Of a DNA stretch of 64,000 nt, positions 7,701 through 64,000 are shown one piece after another. The DNA comes from Prostheceraeus crozeri (taxonomy: Eukaryota > Platyhelminthes > Polycladida > Euryleptidae). A program made the position numbers and the translations under genes. The notes beneath the pieces are model-generated. The model ran no database searches. It was not told where the DNA came from and saw nothing but the letters and a program-made list of their open reading frames with translations. Location: positions 806,001 to 870,000 of the forward strand of contig CAJQUW010005362.1 of assembly GCA_907163375.1 (NCBI GenBank). Reading direction: 5' to 3'. Positions within the stretch are counted from its first letter, which is position 1. Every line of letters begins with the position of its first letter.

Positions 7701-9356
7701 AGGTATTTCTTCAAGCGACATGAATCATGTGTTGTCGCTGACTGCATTGTTTGTGTTCACGATATGCTTTCTAAAGCACTTCAATAAAGAGAATCAATGG
7801 TAGATAGCAACGACCGAAATACCTGATTCATGATATTGTTTAACTCCATAGTTTATCAATGATGTCATAGCCAGGTTAATACTACTCGCATCTCATTTAA
7901 TGATGACTAATATACAAATGTAATGCAACGTGATCTAATTGACTATTAATGTGTTCGTTTGTACTTTTATTGGCAAAAAGCATTCAACGACTAAAATGCA
8001 TGCAATCATTGACATAATACCTATGACAATCTTACTTAAACATCCTAAACAGTTATATTTGAAGTTTTTAGTTTAATTATTTGTCAGCAATCTTTAAACT
8101 CAAAAGAAAAGCGAGCTTTGTGACCAATAATCTATTGTATGATTTATATCAAAGAGCATTCGTTAAATGCGATGCATCTCTTATTTGATCTTTCTTGTCC
8201 TTTATTCTTCCTTTTACCTGAGGATGAAGCTGGACATCAACACGTGGCGTCTTTTGAATATACTATGTATTATGCTTATCTTTTTCAATGCAAATTCAAT
8301 CGGAGCGTATATGTTTCTGCCTCAGTACGCACTTTATTCCCTATAAAACTTCTATCAACTTCTTCAGTTCTTTGTGTGCAGCATACAGTTATGGTTTCCG
8401 CTTATCTTGTCTACTGTCCGCGCTGACAAGCCCTAAAAGACCGAAATGATATGTTATTTGCATTATACTTTCATTTTTTAGATGTCTATGAGAAATTAAA
8501 TTAATTCCTCCTTCTTAAATGATGAGATAGCTTAACTTTGAAGTAACTTTAAGTTAATAAATGTAGGCCTATTTTAGTATTTAGGAGATTTCATTAGTAA
8601 AGAGGGATGTAATATAACATACTTTTTTTATTGAAACTTCTATTCACAAGCGCTCACTGTTTGGATTTTAACAAGGACTGTTGTTTGGAAAAGGAATGGG
8701 ACGGGAATGAGACAATGTGCTGAGATCTATTTTCACATGGGAGGACTATGGAAAGACTATGCAACATTTAAACTTAATTTCTGTGTAACGGTTGTTGGAG
8801 GATTATGTTGCACACCACACTTGACTACCCCTGCATATTTCTTGTATTATTATCCACCACTTGAATATAAGAAAAATAGCCATGTTCTAATTTTTGTTCG
8901 GCAATTTGATAGTTTCTTTGATGATCAGTCTGATGGTGACTGCTTTCAGGATTTGCGAAATTCCGATTTGCTCATAATATTGTTTGTTACCAATTATAAT
9001 TATTCTTTGATTATGCGTGGAACTTTTCTATCAATAAAACAACAGCATTCAGCTAAAATCTTAAGACGACAATCAAGAGATAGGGAGCCTACACAGTGAA
9101 AATGCATTAAGCGAGTTCATTCTTGCAATAATTGGCTGGTGGTGACTATGCTAGTACCGGTAGGCTATTATATGTTAGATAGTAGCAGAGATTGGCGATC
9201 CGTAAATTTGGACCGCCAATCAATTGGCTTGTCGATCTTAAATTGATAATGAACTACAATTTAATGTGCGAGCATGTTGTCATATTGAACAACAGCTCCT
9301 CTTTCTACATGGCACTCTAGAGAGCAATGGCTTTTCCCTCCTGGTTCATGAAGAAA
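4729..9356. other. AT-rich non-coding stretch, no supported gene
   Basis: The region consists of low-complexity AT-rich DNA with frames shorter than 131 codons and no domains. The longest ATG frame is at 8707-9099; its translation resembles no family I know and shows no coding signature. I interpret the stretch as intergenic or intronic. Confidence 0.45.
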
Positions 9357-9409
9357 CATTCACAGCCTGCAAGATTGTGCTGTTCCACGCGCACCCGGAG
9401 TGTATAATC

Positions 9410-9747
9410 AGAAAACCAGAGAAAAACTTCCACAGGTACCAATGTATATATTACGTAGCTCTCCTGACGTTTCGCCTAGTCGGCTTGATCACAGGAAGTG
9501 AAAGACGATACAATCGTTCAGCATGGCATGATTCAACACGTGACATTCATCGAACACGTTCAGCATGGAATGATTTAACACCTGACTGACATTGGACAAT
9601 AGAAAAATTACAAAACGTACACTAAAATAGTTTAAGAACTATTATTCCTTTATAACGACTTCCTGTGATCAAGCCGACTAGGCGAAACGTCAGGAGAGCT
9701 ACGTAATATATACATTGGTACCTGTGGAAGTTTTTCTCTGGTTTTCT
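9410..9747. repeat. perfect 90-bp inverted repeat with 158-bp spacer
   Basis: Bases 9410-9499 and 9658-9747 are exact reverse complements over 90 bp, separated by 158 bp. The arms are free of the AT-rich drift of the surroundings, which suggests a recent origin or gene conversion. The 12-mer CATTCACAGCCT occurs just left (9357-9368) and directly after the right arm (9748-9759), so 9369-9747 is bounded by a direct repeat that could be a target-site duplication. The transcript would fold into a long hairpin. The family is not recognised; a foldback-type DNA element is one possibility. Confidence 0.9.
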
Positions 9748-9777
9748 CATTCACAGCCTCTTCATCAAAAAGTTGTC

Positions 9778-10062
9778 TCAGTTCAGAAGAGGATTTCTAC
9801 TAAAGTGTAGCAAAATGGGCTCGATTGTTCGATCATAACAGAGAAAGTACTCCGCGACATCGAAGGAAGCTATTTTCAACTCCGTGCCATTCCTGTCTAC
9901 ATGACTCGAATTCTCACACGGAATACCATTGAAGACATCGTTCCACTCGAGCAGAGACGCTTGCAAACTTACCAGTTTACTTGTCCTTGAGGACCAAAGT
10001 ACACCGGTAAGAGTGAATATTCCTACAGTAAGAAAGAAGGAACACCACAGAATTAGATTCAT
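9778..10062 (-). CDS. possible 94-aa secreted or type II membrane protein (first exon?)
   Basis: An ATG frame of 94 codons starts with a strongly hydrophobic N-terminus (residues 2-22, MNLILWCSFFLTVGIFTLTG) that would serve as a signal peptide or signal anchor. It is followed by a polar segment with two Cys and two possible N-glycosylation sites (Asn-Ser-Ser and Asn-Gly-Thr). That layout is usual for the N-terminal exon of Golgi type II enzymes or for a small secreted protein, but no catalytic domain is visible. It ends beside the 90-bp inverted repeat and just outside the 10.1-12.5 kb repeat cluster. It could also be a chance frame; no family match is claimed. Confidence 0.3.
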   Translation of the reverse strand: MNLILWCSFFLTVGIFTLTGVLWSSRTSKLVSLQASLLEWNDVFNGIPCENSSHVDRNGTELKIASFDVAEYFLCYDRTIEPILLHFSRNPLLN

Positions 10063-51990: not shown

Positions 51991-53267
51991 CAGTCCGCTT
52001 CATAAAAAGTGGATCATCCTAAAATTTGACTAAATAAAACATAAGTATGATACAGAAAGCATTTTTCATGTTATTTCATGTTATTTCATGTCCATAATAT
52101 ATTTAAATGTCCTTATATAATCTGATAAGCTATGATACAGTAACGGTTCTTAAGAAGCTAATATTTTGTGGCCCTACCCTTTTTGTCAATGACATTACCA
52201 ATTCGTCTAGGCATTGATTCGATGATATCGTTGATTTTTGACTGATCTAACTTTCTCCACTCTCTTTTTAACAGTGACGTAAGTTGTGATACGCCATCTG
52301 TAGGTAGCAGTGAACGACGAACGTTACGTTTTAGAATACTCCATACATTTTCTATGGGATTCAGATCAGGAGAACGAGCTGGCCAAGATAATGTCCTAAG
52401 CCCTAATTGAGACTTGCATGAGTTGACTATACTACTCCTGTGACACGTAGCATTATCATCCATAAATAACCAAGTCGATGGATCACCAAGTTGATATGTC
52501 ATTTGGCCAATGTTCATTCGTAAAACATTCACATAGCGTTCAGAATTCATGGTTCCTTGCTGTATGTGAAGTTCAGAGCGGCCATTGGTCCAAATGCCAG
52601 CCCAAATCAGTAGAGTCGCACCACCTTGTACCCGGGACGATGTAAATGTCTCGGAATTTCCTGATCAGATTTTATCCATAATCTCAATCGACCATCACTA
52701 TCCTTCAGACGGACTGATGCCTCATCAGACCAGACAACCCGATCCCATTGATTTCGCCAGCGACAATGACTCATTGCCCATCTGAGACGTCTTTTTGTAT
52801 GCTGATCTGATAATTCGATCTGAGAGGGCCTCTTACAGCTCTTGAAATTCGACTCAATAAGTCTTCTACGAATAGTGGACTTAGAAATAGACGAGTCTAG
52901 TGCAGCCATCTCAGTTAACGAGAGACTTGGATCAGCTTTAACAAATCTCAAAATCAGGGGGTCTCTACGCTTGGATGTTTTGCGTGGACGGCCAGAGCCC
53001 TCTTTACGACAGAGTCGAAAATCATCATTATGCCATCGATGCACATTTGTGTAAGGGACATTTAGTCGCTTGCTTGTAGATCGCAAAGAAAACCCTAGTT
53101 CTAGCAATACTGACACTTTGCCTTTTGTGAATGCGATCTCGTTATTGTTCATTTGTGCTTTGTATTGTTTTCAACCGGTAAGAGATAGATTTCTAGCTGA
53201 AAGCAATCAGGAGTGCTGCCAACACCACCGCAACGAAGTCAGGAAGCTATGGAACATGAAGTCCAGT
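51991..53267 (-). mobile_element. Tc1-like DNA transposon, about 1.28 kb
   Basis: The element is flanked by TA (51989-51990 and 53268-53269). The left end is CAGTCCGCTTCATAAAAAG; the right end, read inward, is ACTGGACTTCATGTTCC, sharing the CTTCAT core, so the TIRs are degraded. Length and gene content (one transposase on the minus strand) are normal for Tc1. It ends about 250 bp left of the Polinton boundary, apparently as an independent insertion. Confidence 0.8.
52158..53152 (-). pseudogene. Tc1-like transposase, one frameshift
   Basis: Two frames together span about 331 codons, normal Tc1 length. The first (53152 down to 52607) has an N-terminal paired-type helix-turn-helix region (KGKVSVLLELGFSLRSTSKR), a GRPRKT hook and the first catalytic Asp in VVWSDEAS. 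The second (starting before 52550) has the second Asp in FMDDNATCHR and the Glu in PDLNPIENVW, spaced D34E as in Tc1. A single-base shift near 52625 separates them, so the copy is inactive as read. Confidence 0.9.
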
Positions 53268-53551
53268 TAATCACATGTAGCAGTTACATTATTGTTGATG
53301 AATAATGGTGCTATACTGGCTCTGATTGACCGATTTTCTTTATTTTTGTTTTGCTTGATAGCTTTTGGCTTGTAGAACAACATATTACATAACAAAGGAA
53401 ACAACTGTAATTTTATAAGAGTGAGGTATGATTTTGTGTAACATTGGTAAATGAAGATCAAATTATCTACTACTTTTTTTATCTATAACAGGAAAACAAC
53501 TCAATATTCATGCTTGAAAGTAGTAAGCAAGTGACAAACACTCGACCGGCG

Positions 53552-55043
53552 CCCCCCCCCTCTGGAACGGCAGAGTGTCGTGGTCGGCCGCCGTGGTGCT
53601 TCGGGTCTGAGTCCCCCCCCCCTCTGGAACGACAGAGGTTGTGGTCTGTCGTGGTGTGCCGGCCAGGTGGGTTCCCGTTCACAACATGTTCGCTGACTCC
53701 CCCCCCCTCTGCAACGACAGAGTGTGAGACTCGGGTGAGTTGGTCCGACCGCCTGGTTGACGTGGGCGACCGTCTAGGTTGACGTGGGCGACCGTCTAGG
53801 TTGTCGTGGATGGTGAAATGGCTGCCAGATTCGGATTCAGCGTAAAATTCTGCATCGGTAGGGTGAGTTTCAAGGCAATTGGCGAGAAAAAATTTTTCTT
53901 CAAAATTTTAACAGAGTTAGAATTTGGGACGTTTTGGTGTGTAGCGCCCAAACGAAGCATCGGATGAGAAAACGGAGGCCAGATTCGGAATCTACGTGAA
54001 ATTTTGGGTTAGGAAGGATGTTTCCAGCGAAATCGGAGAGAAAAAATTTTCGGCTGACGTCCCCCCCCCTCTGGACAGCTTGCTTCGATTTTGGCTTCCA
54101 GTGGACGGATTTTGTCGTGCGATAGCTCGTTTGAAAGCTAAGAGTGAGACAAATTCAGTGAAAGAATCGGCTTGTTCCTATCTGTCTTCGTTTAGATGTG
54201 AGACGCCATTTAAGATTTTGGGACATTGTCGAAAAACGACAGAGTTAGAATTTGGGACGTTTTGGGCTCTAGCTTCAAAACGAAGCATCGGATTGGAAAA
54301 CGGATTTCAGATTTGGAATCAGCGTGAAATTCTCTATCTGTATGGTGAGTTTCAAGTCAATCGGCGAGAAAAAATTTTCAACATTTTTCGAAAAAACGAC
54401 AGAGTTAGAATTTGGGACGTTTTGGTGTGTAGCGCCCAAACGAAGCATCGGATGAGAAAACGGAGGCCAGATTCGGAATCTACGTGAAATTTTGGGTTAG
54501 GAAGGATGTTTCCAGCGAAATCGGAGAGAAAAAATTTTCACTGACGTCCCCCCCCTCTGGACAGCTTGCTTCGATTTTGGCTTCCAGTGGACGGATTTTG
54601 TCGTGCGATAGCTCGTTTGAAAGCTAAGAGTGAGACAAATTCAGTGAAACAATCGGCTTGTTCCTATCTGTCTTCGTTCAAAAGTTAGAGCGGTTACAAG
54701 ATTTTAGGTCGGAGCTCGCTCACCTGAAAAAATCCTAAGTGTCAGAGTGGCTTTGTATGGGTAAAAATTTGAAAATTTTCCAAAGTGTGGAATTTCGACC
54801 TGGGACCGTCACCAAAACATTTTTCATCAAATTTTGAAATTTCACTGACGTCCCCCCCCTCTGGACAGCTTGCTTCGATTTTGGCTTCCAGTGGACGGAT
54901 TTTGTCGTGCGATAGCTCGTTTGAAAGCTAAGAGTGAGACAAATTCAGTGAAACAATCGGCTTGTTCCTATCTGTCTTCGTTTAGATGTGAGACGCCATT
55001 TAAGATTTTGGGACATTGGCGAAAAACGACAGAGTTAGATTTC
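53552..55043. repeat. Polinton left-end repeat zone: C-tracts and tandem units
   Basis: Six tracts of 8-10 C followed by TCTGG or TCTGC start at 53552, 53613, 53699, 54061, 54548 and 54852. The last three head a tandem unit beginning CTGACGT: 54054-54540 (487 bp), 54541-54844 (304 bp, internally shortened) and 54845 to about 55043. The units are almost identical where they overlap. Inside them, AGAGTTAGAATTTGGGACG recurs (53912, 54240, 54403). A 22-bp unit starting GGTTGACGTGGGCGACC is duplicated at 53755-53798. Open frames across this zone follow the repeat and are not considered genes. Confidence 0.9.
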
Positions 55044-55104
55044 GAATCAGCTTGATGTTATTGTCCAATGAGGATCATCATCCAATGAGAATCAAGCATT
55101 TCTT

Positions 55105-55113
55105 TATAAATAG
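55105..55113 (+). promoter_or_regulatory. TATA box (TATAAATAG) of the rightward array
   Basis: A consensus TATA element stands 108 bp upstream of the first ATG. Initiation would be expected around 55135, leaving a leader of about 75 nt that includes a pyrimidine-rich CTCTCTCTC stretch before the ATG. It is the only clear TATA box before the gene array. The element also encodes a TBP homologue, so it might be autoregulated; that is inference. Confidence 0.7.
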
Positions 55114-55212
55114 CGAGCCTTCCACAGTGAGAATCATTCCATCGTTGAATCACACGAGTGACGGACGCACATTTTCTCTCTCTCTAGTTCCCTGTTCTAT
55201 TATCCAACTAAA

Positions 55213-55988
55213 ATGGTAAGTCGCTACTTCCCTCCCTCTCCTCCCTTGAACGTAAACTTAATACAATCTTTTTTCATTTTCAGGCATCTACTCCATCTGC
55301 TGCACTAGTAGGACAAAATGGCGGTCAAACGTTACAAGGTTCGCTACGGTCAGATCATCTACAACTGAGGCCAGTGGAAGAAACATCCAAGGTACATAAT
55401 CCTACACCGCTACAGCGTAAATTTAAACAAGCCTTGCGTTATGATGATCATAGCGTAGTACTCCAAACGGGAATGCTCCCTTCCACGGATGTCAAGATAA
55501 TGCACAATCAGTATGGGGACTACATACTGATCCCCGTGAGTCCGTACATTCGCCACCAACTTGATATTATTGAGGAGTACGTGACATTAAATATGGACAT
55601 TCCTACTCCTCTTGCTCAAGAGTGGAAGGCGAGAGATGACAAGGATACTCCCTATAGAAAGATTTGGGATGGTAATCACATTTGCCTACCGGTATCACAT
55701 TGGTGTACTTACTATAAGAAGGAGGGAGATCATTCAATACCCATCAGATGTGATGAGCTCGGAGAAGGTACTTGGGATATCCTTTTCAAAGTGAATGGGC
55801 TATATTATGGTCGACACAAGGATAATAAAATAGCCTCTCTCTCCATGCATATGGAATCCATCCTATATATTCCGAAACCACCCAACGTGGACGACATAAT
55901 TGATCAAATCCTTAACAGCAGTGGTACGAAGCGCAAGTCGGAGAAGAATGCTACATCAAAACGCAAATCAAAGAAGGAGAATTGCTAG
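55213..55988 (+). CDS. Polinton protein of unknown function, spliced; basic C-terminus (235 aa)
   Basis: The gene has a start-codon-only first exon: ATG at 55213-55215 is followed directly by a GTAAGT donor (55216), and a 68-bp intron ends in a pyrimidine tract and TTTTCAG (55283). Exon 2 (55284-55988) is open in phase from its first codon. Without splicing the frame has no ATG near its start. I do not recognise the family. A central WDILFKVNGLYYGRH segment and alternating hydrophobic strands would fit a small beta-barrel, possibly an OB-fold single-strand binding protein, but this is speculation. The C-terminal 25 residues are rich in Lys, Arg and Ser (KRKSEKN..KRKSKK), a likely nuclear-localisation or nucleic-acid-binding tail. 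As the first gene after the TATA box it may be an early gene. Confidence 0.8.
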
Positions 55989-56022
55989 TCCTTTCCTAAC
56001 TCTACCCTATGACAATTCGCTT

Positions 56023-56148
56023 ATGTGCTTTGAGTGTCGTAGACGTGGTCTTATTAGATACATTTTACTTCTTCGTTGCCATCATATCATTTGTGTATTT
56101 TGTCGTGAAAAGCATCGATGTAATTCTTCATTTTGTAATATGTTATAG
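56023..56148 (+). CDS. small RING-like zinc-finger peptide (41 aa from ATG)
   Basis: From the first ATG the frame reads Cys2-x2-Cys5-x13-Cys19-x-His21-x2-Cys24-x2-Cys27, then Cys33 and Cys38. The first six ligands have exactly the spacing of the RING protein at 57232, so the two look like paralogues. The last ligand pair is not in the usual C-x2-C arrangement, which may prevent canonical folding. The frame is open upstream of the ATG, overlapping the end of the previous gene, so a longer or spliced form is possible. If functional it would be a ubiquitin-ligase-like module acting on host proteins; it may also be a truncated copy. Confidence 0.5.
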   Translation: MCFECRRRGLIRYILLLRCHHIICVFCREKHRCNSSFCNML

Positions 56149-56182
56149 AACGTTTCCTTAGATGTGTAAATTTCCGTTTTAG

Positions 56183-56731
56183 GCTTCTATCATCATTTTT
56201 ATGGATTGTGAGGGTGAACCTGTACAGGAGCTCAGTGCTATTGCTATGAACAATTGGACATATCAGATTGTTAGTGTCTATCATCAACATGCCAACTGCG
56301 ATCCCAATGTTGATCAATGGGCGAGAAAACACATTCATGGACTTAATCTGAAATATTTGCAAGACTATGGCTTTTCTTGTGAAAGTGCTCTTCTTATTGA
56401 CTTTAAACGATGGTTAGCTGCTTTCAATGTTATACGCATCTTTTGTAATAATCCTGGTAAGGAGAGGAAAGTATTTCCCAATCTAATCATTGATGATATT
56501 TTGCTCCCGCCTTGGGATAGTAGAGTGAATCAACATTATCATGAAGTCACGAAACGTTTTAAGGATTTGTGTGTTCCTATTTTGTCTGTTCGTTGTAGTA
56601 GCTACGTTCATAACCAATGCTTCTTTCCTCCTTACCTCAACACTGCCAAAGTCCTGTATGGTTATCATTGCTCGCTGTATGATAGTTATCAGCTGTATCT
56701 ATTTTATCTCTTTCAAACCATTGATTTATAA
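56183..56731 (+). CDS. DEDDh-type 3'-5' exonuclease-like protein
   Basis: The first in-frame ATG is 56201, but the frame is open and informative upstream to a TTTCCGTTTTAG acceptor ending at 56182. The six codons between encode Ala-Ser then a hydrophobic strand leading into MDCEG, which is what exonuclease motif I needs (Asp2 and Glu4 counting from the ATG). A later N-N-P-G-K-E segment sits where motif II is expected (Glu88 in place of the usual Asp). The C-terminus has His156-x4-Asp161, motif III of the DnaQ/DEDDh class. About 176-182 aa is right for a single exonuclease domain. It presumably trims or proofreads DNA during element replication. The start codon may come from the ATG-only exon at 55213. 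An AATAAA follows 22 bp after the stop. Confidence 0.7.
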   Translation, partial: ASIIIFMDCEGEPVQELSAIAMNNWTYQIVSVYHQHANCDPNVDQWARKHIHGLNLKYLQDYGFSCESALLIDFKRWLAAFNVIRIFCNNPGKERKVFPNLIIDDILLPPWDSRVNQHYHEVTKRFKDLCVPILSVRCSSYVHNQCFFPPYLNTAKVLYGYHCSLYDSYQLYLFYLFQTIDL

Positions 56732-56753
56732 TGCATGCTTGTTACCGTTATTC

Positions 56754-56759
56754 AATAAA
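56754..56759 (+). terminator. AATAAA polyadenylation signal after the exonuclease gene
   Basis: A consensus AATAAA stands 22 bp past the exonuclease stop codon in a short AT-rich gap before the next ATG. It is a plausible 3' end for the first transcription unit. Confidence 0.5.
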
Positions 56760-56818
56760 TGTTACTATGAGAAGAGTTGTTGTTTTCATGCAATGGATGG
56801 GTTAGTTAAAGGGCGATC

Positions 56819-57229
56819 ATGTCTTTCTCAAACGACTGCGGAACATTACGTTTTCATAGGCAAAGTTTAAAAGGAGCTGTTCAAGATTATGTGATAAATT
56901 TTCATAAAGATGAGACCGACATCGAAGCAGTGGTCGATGATGCTAGCACTCTATTTCTAGAGTTAATGAATACATTCTCTGATAGCATTGTCATGGCGCG
57001 ATTAGTTGCGAAAATTAAGTTTAGTCATTTTGGAAAGGAAGAGGTGGAAAGTCGCTCTTTCCATTTTGCTTCTTATTCAATGGAAGTGGTAGATCACCCC
57101 GAAGAATTTTTTAAAAGACATATGATAAAAATTGCTGAACGTCTTAACGCATTTAACCATCATGGTAGCAGTCTAGTGATTGAAGCGATTTCAGATATTC
57201 ACATTCAACTTTCCATAAAGAAAAATTGA
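56819..57229 (+). CDS. Polinton-type protein of unknown function (136 aa)
   Basis: The ATG frame encodes an acidic, mostly alpha/beta protein ending in FNHHGSSLVIEAISDIHIQL. That C-terminal motif (F---GS---I--I---HIQL) resembles one I associate with the N-terminal region of Polinton-type polymerase and related large proteins, where it is normally followed by more sequence. Here it ends five residues later with a stop. It may be a stand-alone version of that domain or a piece separated from a larger gene. It is tightly followed by the RING gene, whose ATG lies 2 bp past its stop. The reaction is unknown. Confidence 0.65.
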   Translation: MSFSNDCGTLRFHRQSLKGAVQDYVINFHKDETDIEAVVDDASTLFLELMNTFSDSIVMARLVAKIKFSHFGKEEVESRSFHFASYSMEVVDHPEEFFKRHMIKIAERLNAFNHHGSSLVIEAISDIHIQLSIKKN

Positions 57230-57231
57230 AA

Positions 57232-57555
57232 ATGCAGTGGTACTTGATTGTAGCACAACTGGTTTTCGAGCTATGTCTGCTCACTCTCGAAGTATATTCC
57301 TTCTGTACATGCGTCTATTATTTAGAAAAGGCTAGCAAATTCATATCTTCAAAAAGACTTGCTATAGACATCAGTAACGGTGAAACTATGTGTTGCGATG
57401 TATGTAAGCGAAAGGATGGAAATGAAAAGCGCATCTTCAAGAGATGTAAGCATGCTTTTTGTCAACGCTGTTTCATACGTAATTGCATTCAACTTTGCCA
57501 ATGTAACCACTGTGACATTGCTCATTTCGAGTGTCACTTATGTCGCAATAGTTAG
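57232..57555 (+). CDS. membrane-anchored RING-finger protein (107 aa)
   Basis: Residues 3-31 (YLIVAQLVFELCLLTLEVYS and on) form a hydrophobic segment fit to be a transmembrane anchor. Residues 55-94 are a complete C3HC4 RING: Cys55-x2-Cys58-x13-Cys72-x-His74-x2-Cys77-x2-Cys80-x10-Cys91-x2-Cys94. A further Cys pair (101, 104) follows. RING proteins usually act as E3 ubiquitin ligases; a viral membrane-bound one could redirect host membrane proteins or trafficking, by analogy only. It is packed between neighbours with 2 and 51 bp gaps. The ATG at 57232 is the first in frame. Confidence 0.75.
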   Translation: MQWYLIVAQLVFELCLLTLEVYSFCTCVYYLEKASKFISSKRLAIDISNGETMCCDVCKRKDGNEKRIFKRCKHAFCQRCFIRNCIQLCQCNHCDIAHFECHLCRNS

Positions 57556-57606
57556 TACCTATGCAAATGTGGTAAAGATAGGTTTTAGCAAAGACTAACA
57601 CGGAAA

Positions 57607-57963
57607 ATGGCGAAACGTAAAATGACGAAACGTAAAAGTCAAAAGTTTTCTTCAGCCATTCAAGCTCTCCGACGAATGAAAGCAAATCAGCGATACAATG
57701 CTATACGACATGCTAACGATAAATTCATTTGTGAAATTATTTCTCATGTGAGGAAGTTGAGGACGAAGAAATTAGCGCCAAAACAACGAAAGTTACTTAA
57801 GCGATATGCTACGAAATTGCGTTTCATCTCCAATCCTAAAGTCGCCCTTCAAAGAAAGAGGAAAACTCTAACACAAAAGGGCGGTTTCCTTTCAGCAATA
57901 CTTCCAATGATAGCTCCTGCCGTGGGCAACCTATTGGGAAATATCTTTGGCTCTAAGCGTTAA
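57607..57963 (+). CDS. basic virion core-like peptide with amphipathic C-terminus (118 aa)
   Basis: The protein is extremely basic (MAKRKMTKRK at the start, many Arg and Lys up to residue 90). It then ends in a hydrophobic Gly-rich stretch from residue 92 (GGFLSAILPMIAPAVGNLLG) followed by FGSKR. Such a basic body plus membrane-active-looking tail is found in Polinton proteins likened to adenovirus core or pVI/pX-type proteins. Probable roles are DNA condensation in the capsid or membrane disruption; neither is shown here. It lies directly upstream of the packaging ATPase, a common virion-gene neighbourhood. Confidence 0.7.
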   Translation: MAKRKMTKRKSQKFSSAIQALRRMKANQRYNAIRHANDKFICEIISHVRKLRTKKLAPKQRKLLKRYATKLRFISNPKVALQRKRKTLTQKGGFLSAILPMIAPAVGNLLGNIFGSKR

Positions 57964-57994
57964 TTATGCAAATGTTGAGTCTCAAAGTAATAAA

Positions 57995-58612
57995 ATGGAT
58001 TTCAGACTTCAATGTGATAAAGTTCTGACTGTATCAGGTCCATCTCATGCAGGTAAAACTGTTTTCACGCTGAATTTATTGGATAAAAGAAGGGAGTTGT
58101 TTAAGGAACCTATCAATCGAGTGATTTGGTGTTATGGTATTTATCAACCGTCGCTGTTTCAGGAATTGCAAAGTCGCAACTTTATTCGACATGAAGGAAT
58201 TATTCCAGTGGATAAACTTCAGTCTAATGATGTTGTTGTATTGGATGATTTATTAAAAGAAAGTAAGAATTCAAAAGATGTTACAGATATGTTCACTCGC
58301 GCAGCACACCATAAAAGGTGTTTTATCATCTATATTACACAAAATTTGTTTCCTGATGGAAAAGAAGCTCGTACACGAAACCTGAATACACACTATTATG
58401 CTATTTTCAAGAATCCGCGAGATAAAAGTCAATTTGAAATTTTAGCGCGACAAGTTGCACCCAGAGGATCAAAAGCCTTAATTGAAATTTTTCAAGCAGC
58501 TACTGAAAAACCATACGGTTACTTATTCATTGACTTTACGCAAGAGTGTCCGGAAGAATTTAGATTTCGAAGTGATATTTTGAAAACTCCCATGATTATC
58601 TACAAACTATGA
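57995..58612 (+). CDS. FtsK/HerA-type DNA packaging ATPase (205 aa)
   Basis: Walker A is GPSHAGKT (residues 15-22), Walker B is VVVLDD (80-85), and a YITQN sensor-type motif is at 113-117. This order and the short length are typical of the A32/FtsK-HerA genome-packaging ATPase of Polintons and related viruses, which pumps DNA into capsids. The frame is open further upstream, but only from a non-ATG codon, so I place the start at the ATG 57995, just before the first beta strand. Its TGA overlaps the next ATG (ATGA), a compact arrangement more like a virus than an animal gene. Confidence 0.92.
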   Translation: MDFRLQCDKVLTVSGPSHAGKTVFTLNLLDKRRELFKEPINRVIWCYGIYQPSLFQELQSRNFIRHEGIIPVDKLQSNDVVVLDDLLKESKNSKDVTDMFTRAAHHKRCFIIYITQNLFPDGKEARTRNLNTHYYAIFKNPRDKSQFEILARQVAPRGSKALIEIFQAATEKPYGYLFIDFTQECPEEFRFRSDILKTPMIIYKL

Positions 58613-59301
58613 GTTCTTATTCTCGCATGATTGTTATTCCTCAGGATGAATATGTACAATTGACTGCCATGCAGCAAGTAAAGCAACCTCTTGCAAATCA
58701 AATGTATAGGAAAGAAATAGATTATCAGCAAAATGTTCACATCAAAGATCCACATCGTGCTGTATTATTACAATCGGAAACTGTTGAGCAATTGAAAAAC
58801 TTGAAGAATAAGATGCGTGACTCTGTATCGACTGCTACACCTTTAGCATCTCGCGCACATGCCATATCTCTTTTCAACAGTATTGAACCCCATCTCAATG
58901 TAAATGATAGAGGAGAAATCATTACAGATGAAAATAAAGTGATTGATGCTTCACGTTATGAAGACTTGATTCAGTATGCGACACGTAGAAAGCGCCGTCA
59001 GGGCTATGTTCCACCTGGTTGGTCATACTTTCTTAAACTATTGAAAAAGCATAATGTGCCAAAATTTGCTTTAAATAATGAGACATTGAAAGAACTTGAT
59101 TCAACAGTGGCTACTACTCCAATGCTTCAGGCGATGAAAATGCCAACAAATTGGTTTAAGGCGTCACCTGCTACATCCCCTCCCACACTCACTAAGCAAA
59201 CAAGAGGAAGAACTCGACGTAGATCTACATCGCCACTAAAACTGGTAAAAGGAAAACGTAAAACAGCTCCTCCTAGGAAATACATGTTCTCAGACTATTA
59301 A
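58609..59301 (+). CDS. conserved Polinton-type protein of unknown function (230 aa)
   Basis: It begins MSSYSRMIVIPQDEYVQL, a start I associate with a widespread Polinton/adintovirus protein. There is a helical mid-region with coiled-coil tendency (55-75), a PPGWSYFLKLLKKHNVP segment (135-151) and a strongly basic, Pro-rich tail (198-225). Overlap with the ATPase stop and position ahead of the integrase suggest a virion or packaging role. A scaffold or core protein is plausible, but I do not know its function. Confidence 0.7.
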   Translation: MSSYSRMIVIPQDEYVQLTAMQQVKQPLANQMYRKEIDYQQNVHIKDPHRAVLLQSETVEQLKNLKNKMRDSVSTATPLASRAHAISLFNSIEPHLNVNDRGEIITDENKVIDASRYEDLIQYATRRKRRQGYVPPGWSYFLKLLKKHNVPKFALNNETLKELDSTVATTPMLQAMKMPTNWFKASPATSPPTLTKQTRGRTRRRSTSPLKLVKGKRKTAPPRKYMFSDY

Positions 59302-59302
59302 T

Positions 59303-59518
59303 ATGAAGCAGATGTGTTGCTTGCCATGTAATGAGCCGCCAGAGGTGAATGTCGTTGTCACTTGCACTTGCTGCGCCAGCTCTCATAATGAAACCCCTAA
59401 GCAATGTGAACACGATCGCAAAACCGCTAAAGCTAAATGCTGCAGTTGTTGTAAATGTAGAAAGGCAAGAAAGAAAAAAGATGAGAAGGAGGAAAAAGAG
59501 TCAGCCGTCATCGACTGA
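59303..59518 (+). CDS. Cys-rich peptide overlapping the integrase start (71 aa)
   Basis: The ATG follows the previous stop by one base. The peptide has about thirteen Cys, many in CC, CxC or CxxC spacing (MCCLPC, CTCCASS, CCSCCKC), then a Lys/Glu-rich tail. It could bind zinc. It overlaps the integrase ATG region (59481) by 38 bp in another frame. Dense Cys usage is unlikely by chance and the spacing fits the array, so I regard it as a probable small gene of unknown function. Confidence 0.45.
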   Translation: MKQMCCLPCNEPPEVNVVVTCTCCASSHNETPKQCEHDRKTAKAKCCSCCKCRKARKKKDEKEEKESAVID

Positions 59519-60569
59519 ACGTTTGAAGTCAATCTATTATGATGTAAAACATCCGGCAGGATTTGCATCTATCAAGAAATTATCAAAAGCGAGTGGTCTT
59601 CCACAATCACAAGTGAAACGATGGTTAAAGGGTCAGGCTACCTATACACTCCACAAACAAGCGAAAAAGAAGTACCGCACCCGCCATTATATTGTTCATG
59701 ACATCGATGAACAGTGGCAAGCAGATTTGTGCGATGTTGCCTCCATTTCAAAACATAACTCGGGCAATAATTTTATTTTAACCGTCATTGATATTTTCTC
59801 GCGTTATGCGTGGGCTCAACCTTTAAAAACTAAAGAAGGGAAAGGAGTAGCAAAAGCATTCCAAACAATTTTTCGAGAAGGTCGCATTCCAAAAAGAATT
59901 CAGAGTGATCAAGGAAAAGAGTTTGAAAATCAGCATGTGACAAGATTATTTGAGAGGCATGACATTGAGTTGTTTAGTGTAAAGAGCGCTTATAAAGCTG
60001 CACTCGTTGAACGTTTTAATCGCACATTAAAAAATCGCTTGTGGCGACATTTTACTGCCAACTTGACACAAAATTGGACAAAGGTTCTACAAGATACACT
60101 CCATGCCTACAATCACTCTATCCATCGTTCTATTGGACTCAGACCAGTAGATGTAAATGCTGACAATGTAGATAAAGTGCGCGAATCATTCCAACGTAAA
60201 CGCACTCATGTGAAAAGTGATGTGAAAATTGGCGATAAAGTTCGTATCTCAAAAGTGAAAAGTGTTTTTGCTAAAGGGTACCTTCCGAATTGGACAGAGG
60301 AGGTATTTACAGTATCAAGGATTAATCAAAAAGACTCTCCGACCACCTACAAGTTGAAAGATTACGATAATGAAGAAATTGAGGGTAGCTTTTACCGCGA
60401 TGAGATTGAGGTAGTCACTGAAAGTGAAACATATTTGGTAGAGAAAATCATTCGATGTAAAAAACGGCAAGGTGAAGAATGGTGTCTTGTTAAATGGACT
60501 GGTTATCCTTCAAGTATGAACTCTTGGATGCGTCGTGCCGACATCTTTCATCTAAGTGATCGACAGTGA
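59481..60569 (+). CDS. Polinton integrase: DDE core plus chromodomain (362 aa)
   Basis: From the ATG at 59481 the protein has a helix-turn-helix-like N-terminus with the Polinton hallmark HPAGF (residues 24-28) and QVKRWLKGQATYTLHK. The catalytic DDE core has Asp82 (QADLCD), Asp143 (QSDQGKEF) and Glu177 (LVERFNRTLKNR), spaced D33E. An SH3-like segment (about 248-312) and a C-terminal chromodomain (about 318-358, with YLVEKI, VKWTGYP and SW) follow. It joins element DNA to the host genome; the chromodomain should bias targeting toward methylated histone tails. The frame is open upstream of this ATG, but only through sequence shared with the Cys-rich peptide. Confidence 0.95.
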   Translation: MRRRKKSQPSSTERLKSIYYDVKHPAGFASIKKLSKASGLPQSQVKRWLKGQATYTLHKQAKKKYRTRHYIVHDIDEQWQADLCDVASISKHNSGNNFILTVIDIFSRYAWAQPLKTKEGKGVAKAFQTIFREGRIPKRIQSDQGKEFENQHVTRLFERHDIELFSVKSAYKAALVERFNRTLKNRLWRHFTANLTQNWTKVLQDTLHAYNHSIHRSIGLRPVDVNADNVDKVRESFQRKRTHVKSDVKIGDKVRISKVKSVFAKGYLPNWTEEVFTVSRINQKDSPTTYKLKDYDNEEIEGSFYRDEIEVVTESETYLVEKIIRCKKRQGEEWCLVKWTGYPSSMNSWMRRADIFHLSDRQ

Positions 60570-60610
60570 TTCATGCAAAGTTGTAACTAACAATGTTTAG
60601 GGTTTGAGCT

Positions 60611-61067
60611 ATGAATCCAACTGCCTCATTTTATTCACGACCCTCCTATGTAAGTGGCGGAGGACAAATTTACATCGGTGCTCGCCGCCAACGTGGAGGT
60701 AGCATACTTGGTGCACTGAAATCTGTTGTAGCACCTCTCATATCCAATGTCGGTAGATCTTTTAAAACGAAATGTTTTAAGTAATGCCGTTGGCTTTGCT
60801 GGTGATGTTGCTAGTGATCTTTCCAGAGGTAGAAGTTTTAAGAGCAGTTTGTTGAATCGTGGGAAGGAACGCGGTTTAAAAACATTGAAGCAGACCATTG
60901 CTGGTGTTACTCAAGGAAAGAAATCACCTAAACGAATGAATAAAGGAAGGAGGAAACATCGCGGAGCTGGTAAGGTGCGATCTTCAGTCAAAAGGCATTC
61001 ACGCAAACGTCGCAGAGGCTCTAATCATTCATCAGGCGCTAAACGACGACGCTGCTATAACTTCTAA
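60611..61067 (+). pseudogene. basic minor virion/core-type protein, split by an apparent +1 frameshift
   Basis: A 57-codon ATG frame (60611-60784) is rich in Gly and Arg and includes ARRQRGGSILGAL. It overlaps a second ATG frame (60747-61067, 106 aa) that continues with GFAGDVASDLSRGRSF and ends in a very basic Arg/Lys/Ser tail. In Polinton relatives these two parts usually belong to one virion protein. The second frame is blocked upstream by a TAG at 60729, so any switch must occur between there and 60784, where T4 and A4 runs sit. It could be a one-base indel (damage or sequencing error) or programmed shifting. The capsid gene follows 2 bp later. Confidence 0.6.
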
Positions 61068-61069
61068 TC

Positions 61070-62347
61070 ATGGAGTGTAAAACTTCCGGTTTTTGTTTGT
61101 TCGATCAACAAGCCATACAGACAGATATTCTTAGTTCAAGTATTGTAGATTATCATCCTCGAACAGCTGAGAATGCTGGCCCCATTGAATTTGTTATTCC
61201 TGGTGGTAGTGATGACTACATAGATTTGAGTTATGCGATGCTTGATTTGAGGTTTAGAATTCAGCAAGCAGATGGAACTGCTATTGACGATGCACATAAA
61301 GTTGGACTGAACAATTTACCATTGACTACATTACTTCGTGATGTTTCTCTAACGATTGGAGAGCAGCAAGTGGAAGGTGGTCAAAGCGATTATCCCTATA
61401 AATCATATTTCAATCATGTATCACAGTTTCATCCAGCAGCACAAAAAAGTCATATGGAAGCCATGGGATGGTACAGAGATGAAGCAGGAAAATTTGATGT
61501 TGAAACAAACAGTGGCTTTGTAAAGCGATCTGCTATGATTAAAGATAGTAGAGTATGTCAGCTATATGGTCCGCTGAATTTAGACTTCTTTAGACAGTCA
61601 AAGTTTTTACTGTGTAATACCAGCATGCGACTCAAGCTGACATTGAATAAGCCTGAATTTGCGCTGAATGCATTTGCTAAAGTTGACAATTTTAGAATTC
61701 ATGTGGAAGATATTGCACTTTACATTCGTCGAGTAGTACCGAATCCAAGTGTCATTAGAGGGCATGCTGAAGGCCTTAACCGCCAAAATGCCATTTACCC
61801 CATTCAGCATACAAAGCTTCTCACCTTTACAATTCCGAAAGATCAAAAGAGTTTCATGAAAGATGGCCTCTTTCCATCGGAAGCACCGAAGCTCCTCATG
61901 GTGGCAATGGTTGAAAATGATGCATTTAATGGTAATATAAAGAAGAATCCTTTCAATTTTAAACACAATCAGTTAAGTGAAATTGCTTTACGTGTAAATG
62001 GTGTGAGTCATCCTGGTCCACCCTACAAACCAGATTTTGCTTCAGATCAATTTATGCGCAGTTATGTTGATTTTATGGATGTTTTTGGCTTTTACAATAC
62101 GGATGACACCAACGGACTGACTATGAAAGAGTTTAAGAGTGGATATACTATTTATGCATTTGATTTGACTGCTGACAGCGATATTAGTGCACCCTATCGT
62201 CAAGCGAACGTGCCTCATAATATTCGTTTGGATTTGACGTTCAAAAGAACACTACCTGAGACGATCAATGTATTAATTTATGCAGTCTTCGATTCAAATA
62301 TTGAAATTACAAAGTATCGTGACGTGATTCTTCAGTATAATCGTTAA
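61070..62347 (+). CDS. capsid protein, F54H12.2-like Polinton family (425 aa)
   Basis: The N-terminal third carries the family landmarks: YHPRTAENAGPIEFVIPG (residues 28-45), DYIDLSYAMLDLRFRI (49-64), YPYKSYF, then TGFVKR-like and RVCQLYGPLNLDFF stretches. A conserved ENDAFNGNIKKNPFNFKH lies near residues 283-300. A YTIYAFDLT segment is near the C-terminus. This family (annotated in many animals as F54H12.2-like) is the Polinton structural protein; its length and beta-rich pattern fit a double jelly-roll major capsid protein. It should self-assemble into the icosahedral shell. The frame is intact, ending TAATG with the protease ATG overlapping by one base. Confidence 0.88.
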   Translation: MECKTSGFCLFDQQAIQTDILSSSIVDYHPRTAENAGPIEFVIPGGSDDYIDLSYAMLDLRFRIQQADGTAIDDAHKVGLNNLPLTTLLRDVSLTIGEQQVEGGQSDYPYKSYFNHVSQFHPAAQKSHMEAMGWYRDEAGKFDVETNSGFVKRSAMIKDSRVCQLYGPLNLDFFRQSKFLLCNTSMRLKLTLNKPEFALNAFAKVDNFRIHVEDIALYIRRVVPNPSVIRGHAEGLNRQNAIYPIQHTKLLTFTIPKDQKSFMKDGLFPSEAPKLLMVAMVENDAFNGNIKKNPFNFKHNQLSEIALRVNGVSHPGPPYKPDFASDQFMRSYVDFMDVFGFYNTDDTNGLTMKEFKSGYTIYAFDLTADSDISAPYRQANVPHNIRLDLTFKRTLPETINVLIYAVFDSNIEITKYRDVILQYNR

Positions 62348-62808
62348 TGAGTTGGTTGACTGCTGACGATATTAAGACTAAAGTGCAGCGTAATGCAGAC
62401 GAAGCGACGTTGAAAGCTTTCGATAATGTCTATTCACTCGATACCTTACCACCTGCAGTAAATCACTATCCCATCTTTATTGTGCTAAACACTCATTCAC
62501 AGAATTTAGGCGGTGAGCATTGGAAAGCGATCTTTATTGGAGAAGACCGACGTGGTGAACTATTTGACTCTCTTGCTCAACCTCCAAATATACCAACACA
62601 GCAGTGGTTGAGAAAACATACGCGTCAATATCAGCGAAATGAACGCATACTACAACATCCACTTTCATCAACGTGTGGTGCTTTTGTACTGTACTTCATC
62701 TTAAAACGTTTACATGTATCTCGATTTGCATCTATTATTCAAAACTTTTCATGTAATCCATCCTCTAATGAAAAAATGATTTGTAAGTTCTATCATGATT
62801 TGAAATAA
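62347..62808 (+). CDS. adenain-like cysteine protease (153 aa)
   Basis: Catalytic landmarks are His58 in GGEHWKAIFI, an acidic residue in ELFDSL (Glu71 or Asp74), the oxyanion Gln103 and nucleophile Cys110 in SSTCGAFVLYF. Their order and spacing match adenovirus maturation protease and the Polinton PRO family (C48/C5-like fold). It would process virion precursor proteins during assembly. The start overlaps the capsid stop by one base, implying coupled expression. An AATAAA overlaps its own stop codon. Confidence 0.92.
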   Translation: MSWLTADDIKTKVQRNADEATLKAFDNVYSLDTLPPAVNHYPIFIVLNTHSQNLGGEHWKAIFIGEDRRGELFDSLAQPPNIPTQQWLRKHTRQYQRNERILQHPLSSTCGAFVLYFILKRLHVSRFASIIQNFSCNPSSNEKMICKFYHDLK

Positions 62809-62809
62809 A
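62804..62809 (+). terminator. AATAAA overlapping the protease stop codon
   Basis: The hexamer includes the TAA stop (62806-62808). It is the likely polyadenylation signal of the rightward late array, within the 27-bp gap before the convergent gene ends. Confidence 0.5.
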
Positions 62810-62834
62810 AACATCATGTTGGAAAAAATTGTTT

Positions 62835-62840
62835 TTTATT
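62835..62840 (-). terminator. AATAAA overlapping the TBP-like stop codon
   Basis: On the minus strand the hexamer includes the TAA stop of the TBP-like gene, mirroring the signal of the convergent protease gene. The two transcription units therefore share a back-to-back 3' end. Confidence 0.5.
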
Positions 62841-63381
62841 TTACAATCCGCTGGGTACGTACATACTCAATGAGATAGTCTAGGATCATATTTGCTTGTT
62901 CATGAGATTTTAGTCCAGTAATGATCACTTTACTATTATGAAAGATTGCCACATGCACAGGCAACCAACAACTAATGAGAGCTGCAGGAAAAAGTTCGGG
63001 TTCATAACACAAACTGTAACTGCTGGTACGAATCTTCAAAAATGATAGACTGTCACTCAATTGAGTAGAGATCACCATATTGTCCACAGTCAGATTCGAC
63101 ATCACACACCTCTCCCTCTTCCATATCCGACGTAGTAGTCTTTGTAGCTCTAAGCGCATTGACTGCGCCGATGAATGAGAAAGGGCGCCGAGAATCTGTA
63201 CAGTCCCATTTGGGAAGAGTTGAAGATTCCGTGAATTGTTCATCTTCACCACTAACATTTGAGGACGGCCCGGGTAATACTTGCTGTTTGGAAGCTGTTG
63301 GCGTAATGTTGTGAGATCGATTTTGGTGTAGAGTCTGAAGCGACGGAGAATGTTGACGATGGTGTAGCGATGGCGCTTCAT
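62836..63381 (-). CDS. TATA-binding-protein homologue encoded by the Polinton (181 aa)
   Basis: Counting from the ATG at 63381, the whole protein is a TBP core of two direct repeats. Repeat 1 (about 7-85) has KIDLTTL, a YYPGRP segment, MLVVKM, LFPNGTVQILGA and SAQ. Repeat 2 (about 97-175) has DNMVIS, SYSLCYEPELFP (YEPELFP at 126-132 is identical to the diagnostic heptapeptide of eukaryotic TBP), AIFHNSKVIITGLKS and EQA. Three of the four DNA-intercalating Phe positions are kept (Phe56, Phe131, Phe147); the fourth is Pro40. There is no N-terminal extension, and 181 aa equals the canonical core. It should bend TATA-type promoters, perhaps for element genes. The frame is open upstream to 63525, but that part overlaps the PC4-like gene and has no TBP homology. 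Confidence 0.88.
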   Translation of the reverse strand: MKRHRYTIVNILRRFRLYTKIDLTTLRQQLPNSKYYPGRPQMLVVKMNNSRNLQLFPNGTVQILGALSHSSAQSMRLELQRLLRRIWKRERCVMSNLTVDNMVISTQLSDSLSFLKIRTSSYSLCYEPELFPAALISCWLPVHVAIFHNSKVIITGLKSHEQANMILDYLIEYVRTQRIVK

Positions 63382-63703
63382 GATGAAAGAATGAGTAAAT
63401 TGAGCGATGTACCTTCCTTTTATACTTTTCCCAACTACCTTGATGAAATGTGAAGTTAGTATGAAGTTGGGAATGATAGAGTTGAATTCGCCGATTGTTG
63501 ACGCGCAGCCAGATGCGATTTCCAATACGTGAATGTCTTTTCATATAGAAGTATTTCAAGTCCTTCATGATATGATGTAGAGATTGAAAATGACGATAAG
63601 ATAAAGCAAACTCTCTTCTCACATTTCCAGTTGAATCTTTGAAATAGACGTTTCGATCATGATCCGTTTCAATACGTTGTAGGGAATCTAATTTCCAACT
63701 CAT
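63053..63703 (-). CDS. PC4/SUB1-like protein with overprinted acidic C-terminus (216 aa)
   Basis: Residues about 8-50 (NVYFKDSTGNVRREFALSY, then HFQSLHHIMKDL) and about 56-100 (NRIWLRVNNRRIQLYHSQ, then FHQGSWEKYKRKVHRSI) each show a strands-then-helix pattern with the F/I-x-L-S/T...W/F-x-x-L signature of the PC4/SUB1 ssDNA-binding coactivator fold. I infer two PC4-like modules. The match is to fold pattern and short motif, so it is tentative. The rest (110-216) is polar, ending in acidic EEGEVCDVESDCGQYGD; this part overlaps the TBP-like gene by 329 nt in another frame. The ATG is 22 bp past the stop of an upstream paralogue. Confidence 0.6.
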   Translation of the reverse strand: MSWKLDSLQRIETDHDRNVYFKDSTGNVRREFALSYRHFQSLHHIMKDLKYFYMKRHSRIGNRIWLRVNNRRIQLYHSQLHTNFTFHQGSWEKYKRKVHRSIYSFFHHEAPSLHHRQHSPSLQTLHQNRSHNITPTASKQQVLPGPSSNVSGEDEQFTESSTLPKWDCTDSRRPFSFIGAVNALRATKTTTSDMEEGEVCDVESDCGQYGDLYSIE

Positions 63704-63725
63704 GGTGCGTGGTAATCATATCTGA

Positions 63726-64000
63726 TTAAGATTTGCATAGTAGGGCGATGAACTCACGACGAATAAATGTCATGATGGAGCGATGTATGTATCTTCTATA
63801 CTTCTCCCAATTGTATTTGCGAAATGAGAAACAGTTTGCGGAATGAGAATGGTAGATTTGAATTTCATTTCTGTAATGTTGAAGCCAAACTTGATCACCC
63901 AAGGAGATGAATCTTAATGTTTCAAAATATTCCAAATCCCTCATGATATCATTGAGGTTGACAAATTGTCGCCATGTTAATGTAATTCCTCTTGATGTAT
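63726..64000 (-). CDS. PC4/SUB1-like paralogue, N-terminus beyond window (partial)
   Basis: The minus frame is open from the window edge to a TAA at 63726. It begins with a SRGITLTWRQFVNLNDIMRD segment, whose G-I-x-L-x-x-x-x-F/W-x-x-L pattern is the clearest PC4-like signature here. It continues into GDQVWLQHYRNEIQIYHS and KYNWEKYRRYIHRSIMTFI. It aligns with the neighbouring gene throughout (MRDLEYF against MKDLKYF; WEKYRRYIHRSI against WEKYKRKVHRSI), so the two arose by tandem duplication. It ends soon after the second module, without the acidic tail of its neighbour. An ATG at 63944 exists, but homology extends upstream of it. Confidence 0.65.
   Translation of the reverse strand, partial: TSRGITLTWRQFVNLNDIMRDLEYFETLRFISLGDQVWLQHYRNEIQIYHSHSANCFSFRKYNWEKYRRYIHRSIMTFIRREFIALLCKS

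What the first reader, a model, noticed from the sequence alone, without database searches (positions are those of the whole stretch)
62836..63381. A Polinton-like element encodes its own TATA-binding protein
The minus-strand frame beside the protease gene is a complete two-repeat TBP core. It has an exact YEPELFP heptapeptide, DNMVIS and paired F-x-x-G-x-V/K-x-x-T-G strands, and three of four intercalating Phe retained. TBP genes are known in some giant viruses, but I know of no established description in animal Polintons. It suggests that the element drives its own promoters, for instance the TATAAATAG box at 55105, or captures the host initiation machinery.
Basis: partly seen in the sequence, partly recalled or inferred. 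Interest (0 to 1): 0.93.

Follow-up and report, generated by a model that had tools for sequence, protein, structure and literature searches.

The report
Polinton-encoded TATA-binding protein
A virus-like jumping element present in many copies in this animal's genome carries its own version of TBP, the protein that marks where genes start being read, which suggests that the element brings its own factor for steering the host's gene-reading machinery.

The parts
53519..64000 (.). Part of the Polinton-like element inside the window; left end AGTAGTAAGCAAGTGAC at 53519; the element runs on past the window into L009
   Evidence: the window and two other copies (L038, L039) align from this base, with different immediate flanks; right part in L009/L042
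55105..55113 (+). TATAAATAG box upstream of the first gene
55213..55988 (+). First gene: start codon followed directly by GTAAGT, acceptor TTTTCAG at 55277-55283, then 234 codons open from 55284; function unknown
   Evidence: splicing inferred
57947..58612 (+). A32-like packaging ATPase (presumed)
   Evidence: Pox_A32 E=0.022, below Pfam cut-off
59349..60569 (+). Retroviral-type integrase with chromodomain
   Evidence: PF00665 E=1.2e-10, PF00385 E=6.5e-7
61070..62347 (+). Presumed major capsid protein (425 aa)
   Evidence: name recalled from position; no Pfam hit, no PDB hit with a 23-row profile, one weak PHROGs hit of another kind (E=0.0047)
62347..62808 (+). Cysteine protease, Ulp1/adenain type (presumed)
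   Evidence: Peptidase_C48 E=0.0013, Peptidase_C5 E=0.044, both below cut-off
62836..63381 (-). TBP-family protein, 181 aa, two repeats
63417..63424 (-). TATAAAAG box 43 nt upstream of the TBP start codon
63053..63703 (-). Upstream ORF (216 aa): N-terminal part related to the PUR/PC4-like protein next to it (43% identity to P0062), C-terminal 108 codons overprint TBP in another frame
63726..64000 (-). Second PUR/PC4-like ORF (122 aa from the first possible start), cut by the window end; complete in L009 727-1095

Best explanation
The ORF is a TBP-family initiation factor that has long been a fixed gene of a group of animal Polinton-like elements. It most likely works in the nucleus as an element-specific TBP. 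Its conserved C-terminal repeat docks on one half of an A/T-rich box and recruits host TFIIB, and through it host RNA polymerase II. Its remodelled N-terminal repeat changes promoter choice and probably escapes TFIIA/Mot1-type control. It probably acts on element promoters, including its own TATAAAAG box, and the overlapping PUR/PC4-like protein(s) may help as ssDNA-binding cofactors. Shown here: TBP sequence and predicted fold, residence in three Polinton-like lineages, low dN/dS between them, a TATA box at about the same place before the gene, a conserved open overlapping frame. Inferred: DNA and TFIIB binding, promoter targets, the cofactor role.
Against: No expression, binding or promoter data. 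The N-terminal half lost Phe99 (Pro, 41/41) and Thr124 (Leu/Met/Phe), so ordinary TATA binding may be impaired. Only 2 of 18 gene starts have TATAAA/TATATA/TATAAG within 90 nt upstream, TBP itself and ORF472, where the box abuts the start codon, so most element genes show no nearby TATA box. In lineages I and III the TBP box lies in a stretch (TGGGAAAAGTATAAAAGG) that also encodes Trp-Glu-Lys-Tyr-Lys-Arg of the upstream ORF, so protein constraint may explain its conservation.
Confidence: 0.56

Rival explanations
1. A herpesvirus ORF24-like late factor: the element's TBP recognises a private, non-TATA late promoter together with element proteins (the PUR/PC4-like ones), while host TBP serves the TATA-bearing genes at the element's ends.
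For: N-terminal DNA contacts changed the same way throughout the family; the two terminal genes have TATA boxes and leader introns, while 16 of the 18 gene starts printed have no TATAAA/TATATA/TATAAG within 90 nt (the PolB-like ORF is among the 16, its box lies further up, before the leader exon); the precedent of KSHV ORF24, which replaces TBP at TATTWAA late promoters (PMC12529657, passages).
Against: A TATAAAA box stands before the TBP gene itself in all three lineages. No common non-TATA motif was looked for.
Confidence: 0.23
2. A decoy or host-shutoff protein: a TBP mimic that occupies TFIIB or TATA boxes and lowers host transcription.
For: TFIIB-contact residues kept while the N-terminal control surface has diverged.
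Against: Minor-groove contact residues of the C-terminal repeat are invariant in 41 of 41, which a pure TFIIB decoy would not need; an element living as many chromosomal copies gains little from host shutoff (inference).
Confidence: 0.1
3. A DNA-bending architectural protein for element replication or packaging rather than transcription.
For: TBP folds bend DNA (established knowledge); in lineages I and II the neighbours are the presumed capsid and protease genes.
Against: Strict retention of the TFIIB Glu pair (40/41, 41/41) has no obvious role there.
Confidence: 0.05
4. A host TBP retrocopy carried along by one element.
For: Eukaryote-like YEPELFP heptapeptide.
Against: Three diverged lineages, two of them in many copies, a 100/100 clade with a long stem, a different, intron-containing host TBP.
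Confidence: 0.01

Closest known systems
Cellular TBP (eukaryotes, archaea)
   Same: two-repeat saddle fold; C-terminal minor-groove contacts (N, V, F, F, T) and the TFIIB Glu pair
   Different: 19-27% identity to the TBP chains listed; Phe99 to Pro, Thr124 to Leu/Met/Phe, human E191 (recalled numbering) never Glu (0/41); no long N-terminal domain
TBP-fold proteins of large DNA viruses (giant viruses, asfarviruses, poxviruses, mirusviruses)
   Same: virus-encoded TBP-fold proteins; 50 BFVD matches at E<=0.001, several named TBP, others uncharacterised proteins of iridoviruses and ascoviruses; N-lobe regulator signature not kept in viral TBPs (PMC7221094, section 12 read)
   Different: separate clade from the 10 giant-virus TBPs sampled (six of them kept). 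PMC7221094 reports about 40% conservation at the TFIIB-contact position C.L3.2 and a viral TFIIB in almost all TBP-bearing viruses except poxviruses (sections 9 and 11 read, passages of section 24); that E127/E129 are C.L3.2/C.L3.4 is my mapping. Here the Glu pair is kept and no TFIIB was found in the 18 ORFs scanned
KSHV ORF24, viral TBP mimic of late transcription
   Same: works-like candidate: viral TBP replacing host TBP with host Pol II (PMC12529657, passages)
   Different: ORF24 has an N-terminal part that binds Pol II and a C-terminal part that contacts DNA, and needs all four Phe; here a bare 181-aa core with three
Polinton/Maverick elements
   Same: chromodomain integrase, presumed protease, ATPase, capsid and PolB-like ORFs, about 20 kb
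   Different: TBP and the overprinting PUR/PC4-like gene are not in the Polinton gene lists I know (recalled)
PUR-alpha / Whirly / PC4 ssDNA-binding fold
   Different: no sequence-level hit to that class; Foldseek's own list has nothing at E<=0.001

Membership tests
TBP (PF00352) | two tandem TBP repeats by profile | tested here: met
   E=7.6e-21, two stretches
TBP (PF00352) | saddle-shaped two-lobe fold | tested here: met
TBP (PF00352) | four DNA-intercalating Phe | tested here: inconclusive
   three of four kept in 41/41, the fourth is Pro in 41/41; host TBPL1, a TBP paralogue, also departs at three of them
TBP (PF00352) | TFIIB-contact Glu pair in the C-terminal stirrup | tested here: met
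   E127 40/41, E129 41/41
TBP (PF00352) | binds and bends TATA DNA | not testable with these tools
   needs EMSA or a structure
Polinton/Maverick | retroviral-type integrase with chromodomain | tested here: met
Polinton/Maverick | adenain/Ulp1-type protease and A32-type ATPase | tested here: inconclusive
   right families but below Pfam cut-off
Polinton/Maverick | protein-primed DNA polymerase B | tested here: inconclusive
   1276-aa ORF with zinc fingers, an endonuclease VII-type stretch and polymerase-like motifs recalled by eye; no PolB family hit in Pfam, PDB or PHROGs
Polinton/Maverick | jelly-roll major capsid protein | tested here: inconclusive
   425-aa ORF with 268 database relatives, one of them identical; no Pfam or PDB hit; not folded
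Polinton/Maverick | terminal inverted repeats starting AG and a 6-bp target duplication | tested here: inconclusive
   left end starts AGTAGTAAGC; no inverted partner found, right end not resolved because two of the three contigs stop there
PUR/PC4 ssDNA-binding fold (neighbour gene) | tandem four-strand-plus-helix repeats | tested here: inconclusive
Viral TBP with its own TFIIB | TFIIB homologue in the same genome | tested here: inconclusive
   none among the 18 lineage I ORFs scanned in Pfam; shorter ORFs, ORF149, the unresolved right end and lineages II/III not scanned

The most novel reading that the evidence does not exclude
Animal Polintons carry a private initiation module: a half-remodelled TBP and a PUR/PC4-like ssDNA-binding protein encoded on overlapping frames. 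It gives the element its own promoter code, plugged into host TFIIB and Pol II without an RNA polymerase or TFIIB of its own, and it is one reason why these elements could expand to many hundreds of copies.
Probability: 0.3. Interest if true: 0.92.

Novelty: new variant of a known kind. Interest (0 to 1): 0.82.

Why it matters
Virus-encoded TBPs are described for giant viruses (PMC11464507, PMC12085832, passages), mirusviruses (PMC10132985, passages), asfarvirus B263R (PMC5825884, listing only) and, in very diverged form, poxviruses (PMC7221094, section 9), and a TBP mimic for KSHV (PMC12529657, passages). These viruses have much larger genomes (recalled), and many bring a TFIIB. A roughly 20-kb animal element with a bare TBP and no TFIIB or polymerase found in the ORFs scanned would be the smallest such system I know of (recalled), and it would have to work through host TFIIB. 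It gives a direct handle on the open question whether animal Polintons are live viruses with a regulated early/late programme, and it supplies a natural TBP in which one half of the saddle is rewritten and the other frozen.

Tried and rejected
Host retrocopy: rejected. The host TBP match is split over separate exons about 15 kb apart and is canonical, and the element TBPs form their own clade. Origin from giant-virus or eukaryotic TBP: unresolved. Polinton plus eukaryote is one side of a branch at 72/100; Polinton plus giant virus is not rejected, p-AU 0.361. The stem is very long, the tool warned that long branches meet (gv_L050 with the Polinton rows), the archaeal outgroup was not one side of a branch, and for I dropped four giant-virus rows, TBPL1, four lineage copies and 19 of the 33 database homologues. 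The giant-virus sample came from a scan whose patterns include YEPE[LQ]FP, so it is no control for the TFIIB Glu pair.

Outside context for the 60 homologues: failed. TBP and capsid scans of viral contigs and genome contigs found no relative; the contigs behind the hits cannot be fetched here. So whether the database homologues sit in Polintons is not shown. Hints only, from equal longest-contig lengths: P0002 (TBP) and P0063 (PUR/PC4-like) 1771; P0062 and P0066 12876, P0065 and P0067 11119 (PUR/PC4-like with presumed capsid). No TBP contig length equals a capsid contig length among the 120 of 268 capsid relatives listed. PC4 proper: sequence searches found nothing; the structural second look put PUR-alpha ahead of PC4; Foldseek's own list was not significant. 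Right end, inverted repeats and target duplication: not resolved. The TFIIA reading of human E191/R205 rests on recalled mutants; a paper search for it returned 0. PolB and capsid names: not confirmed.

Literature (paper search, held open-access library only): Polinton + TATA-binding protein 3 papers; adintovirus + TATA 2; Maverick + TATA-binding protein + transposon + virus 1; Polinton + TBP 2; Polinton + TFIID 1; further listings. Passages were seen in PMC10675990, PMC10132985, PMC12220804, PMC11464507, PMC12085832, PMC7786948, PMC7221094 and PMC12529657, and sections 9, 11 and 12 of PMC7221094 were read. None of these passages describes a TBP in a Polinton. PMC5469831 and PMC11640650 were seen as listings only.

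Full report

The element. The window's copy starts at 53519 with AGTAGTAAGC, where it and two other copies with different immediate flanks begin to align. It continues past the window into L009. Inside are a chromodomain integrase (significant), a protease and an ATPase of the expected kinds (sub-threshold) and a 425-aa presumed capsid protein; beyond the window lie a second PUR/PC4-like ORF, three further ORFs and a 1276-aa ORF that I take for PolB. The polymerase and capsid names rest on recalled motifs and position; Pfam, PHROGs and PDB did not confirm them. The right end and inverted repeats were not resolved; two of the three contigs stop there.

Not a retrocopy, not one copy. The host has a canonical TBP split over exons (L001, L003) and a TBPL1 (L002). 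A PF00352 search of the 2.05-Gb genome scored its maximum of 150 places out of 10,983 candidates; four of those rows are host TBP or TBPL1 exons. Of the other 146 I examined 21: 20 chosen loci (L010-L029) and L006. All 21 lie among Polinton-type genes. PolB-like sequence is present in 19 of the 20 chosen loci, and the twentieth (L029) has capsid, protease, integrase and ATPase genes. The 20 fall into three lineages. Lineage I (8 of 20, like the window) and II (3 of 20) have protease and TBP genes facing each other. Lineage III (9 of 20) has TBP near the polymerase-like gene in a different order. Eight further loci around identical copies (L030-L037) show the same neighbours as the window (8 of 8). 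A search with the lineage II protein scored 150 places: 3 at 96-100% (lineage II) and 147 at 54-56%, which I assign to lineage III by identity; 4 of the 147 carry a stop (a capped, best-first list). The window's protein is 100% identical in 150 of 150 scored places, all in contigs numbered up to 2530 of 14165, so the real number is probably many hundreds (rough extrapolation). 30 of the 66 identical capsid places in that contig range have a listed identical TBP at constant spacing; the other 36 may have a non-identical TBP or one beyond the cap, which I did not check. Eight copies differ from the window by 0.04-0.53% over 2.7 kb, so the burst is recent.

Relatives and age. Sixty proteins in a 5.8-billion-sequence collection match, at 34-81% identity, without names or context, so that they too sit in Polintons is not shown. 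In a 62-row tree (33 of the 60 homologues) they and the three lineages form one branch with support 100/100, apart from cellular TBPs and ten giant-virus TBPs (the tool warned of long branches meeting). A thinned 34-row tree with the long rows dropped agrees. The source of the gene is unresolved. At the residue before F131 the family has Leu (36/41) or Ile (5/41), as eukaryotes have Leu, where the three archaeal rows and nine of ten giant-virus rows (the tenth blank) have Gln: a hint of eukaryotic origin. Between lineages dS is 1.2-2.5 (near saturation) and dN 0.40-0.63, which indicates purifying selection.

Anatomy of function. Mapping through the HMMER alignment (residue roles and numbering of cellular TBP are recalled), the C-terminal repeat keeps the minor-groove residues (N101, V103, F131, F147, T155, 41/41 each) and the two acidic residues that contact TFIIB (E127 40/41, E129 41/41). 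PMC7221094 (sections 9, 11 and 12 read) reports that viral TBPs as a class are poorly conserved at these positions (about 40% at C.L3.2) and nearly always come with a viral TFIIB, poxviruses excepted. I found no TFIIB among the 18 lineage I ORFs given to Pfam. In the N-terminal repeat, yeast F99 is Pro (41/41), T124 is Leu/Met/Phe, V71 is Met/His/Leu, and human E191, a residue I recall as important for TFIIA, is never Glu (0/41). So one half of the saddle is frozen and the other is rewritten in a family-wide way. The prediction is host TFIIB recruitment with changed promoter choice and little TFIIA or Mot1 control.

Promoters. A TATAAAA box sits 31-43 nt upstream of the position aligned to TBP codon 1 in 28 of 30 distinct places (32 of 34 rows; nine of the 30 are near-identical copies). 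L018 has TATAAATG and L026 TATAGAAG. In lineages I and III the box lies in a shared stretch that also encodes Trp-Glu-Lys-Tyr-Lys-Arg of the upstream ORF, so coding constraint cannot be excluded. The two outermost genes have TATA boxes further up and an ATG followed directly by GTAAGT with a TTTCAG acceptor before GCATC, which points to nuclear transcription by host Pol II and host splicing. Against a simple TATA model, of the 18 gene starts whose upstream 90 nt I printed only TBP and ORF472 have TATAAA/TATATA/TATAAG, and at ORF472 it abuts the start codon.

Verdict. A TBP gene is a conserved component of three Polinton-like lineages in this animal, most likely an element-specific initiation factor that uses host TFIIB and Pol II. 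Identity and residence are shown; mechanism is inferred. In the held library my searches found no paper that describes a Polinton TBP (searches named under Tried and rejected); that does not cover subscription journals or preprints outside it.

Noticed in passing
63053-63381 (-), L011 and L019: The upstream PUR/PC4-like ORF overprints 101-112 TBP codons in another frame in one tested copy of each of the three lineages; 1 of 5000 synonymous shuffles keeps the frame open as long in each. Some other copies have it broken.
   Followed up: partly
whole element; G000: Very recent amplification: at least 150 places with an identical TBP protein and at least 99 with an identical 425-aa presumed capsid protein; eight copies 99.5-99.96% identical to the window.
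   Followed up: partly
55213-55283 and L009 8367 (-): Both terminal genes start with ATG followed at once by GTAAGT and rejoin at TTTCAG before GCATC: a shared leader-exon design.
   Followed up: partly
52086-53496: A stretch with mariner-like transposase ORFs (name recalled, not tested) abuts the left end; in copy L038 matching pieces abut the left end in the opposite orientation, in copy L039 none was found. Possible insertion preference.
   Followed up: no
53530-55042 and L009 around 9139-9964: Arrays of direct repeats near both ends of the element; contigs C4454 and C1822 both stop at about the same point past the right array.
   Followed up: no
P0067: A relative of the 425-aa protein (87%) is filed under a MAG labelled Pseudomonadota, perhaps animal DNA in the bin.
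   Followed up: no
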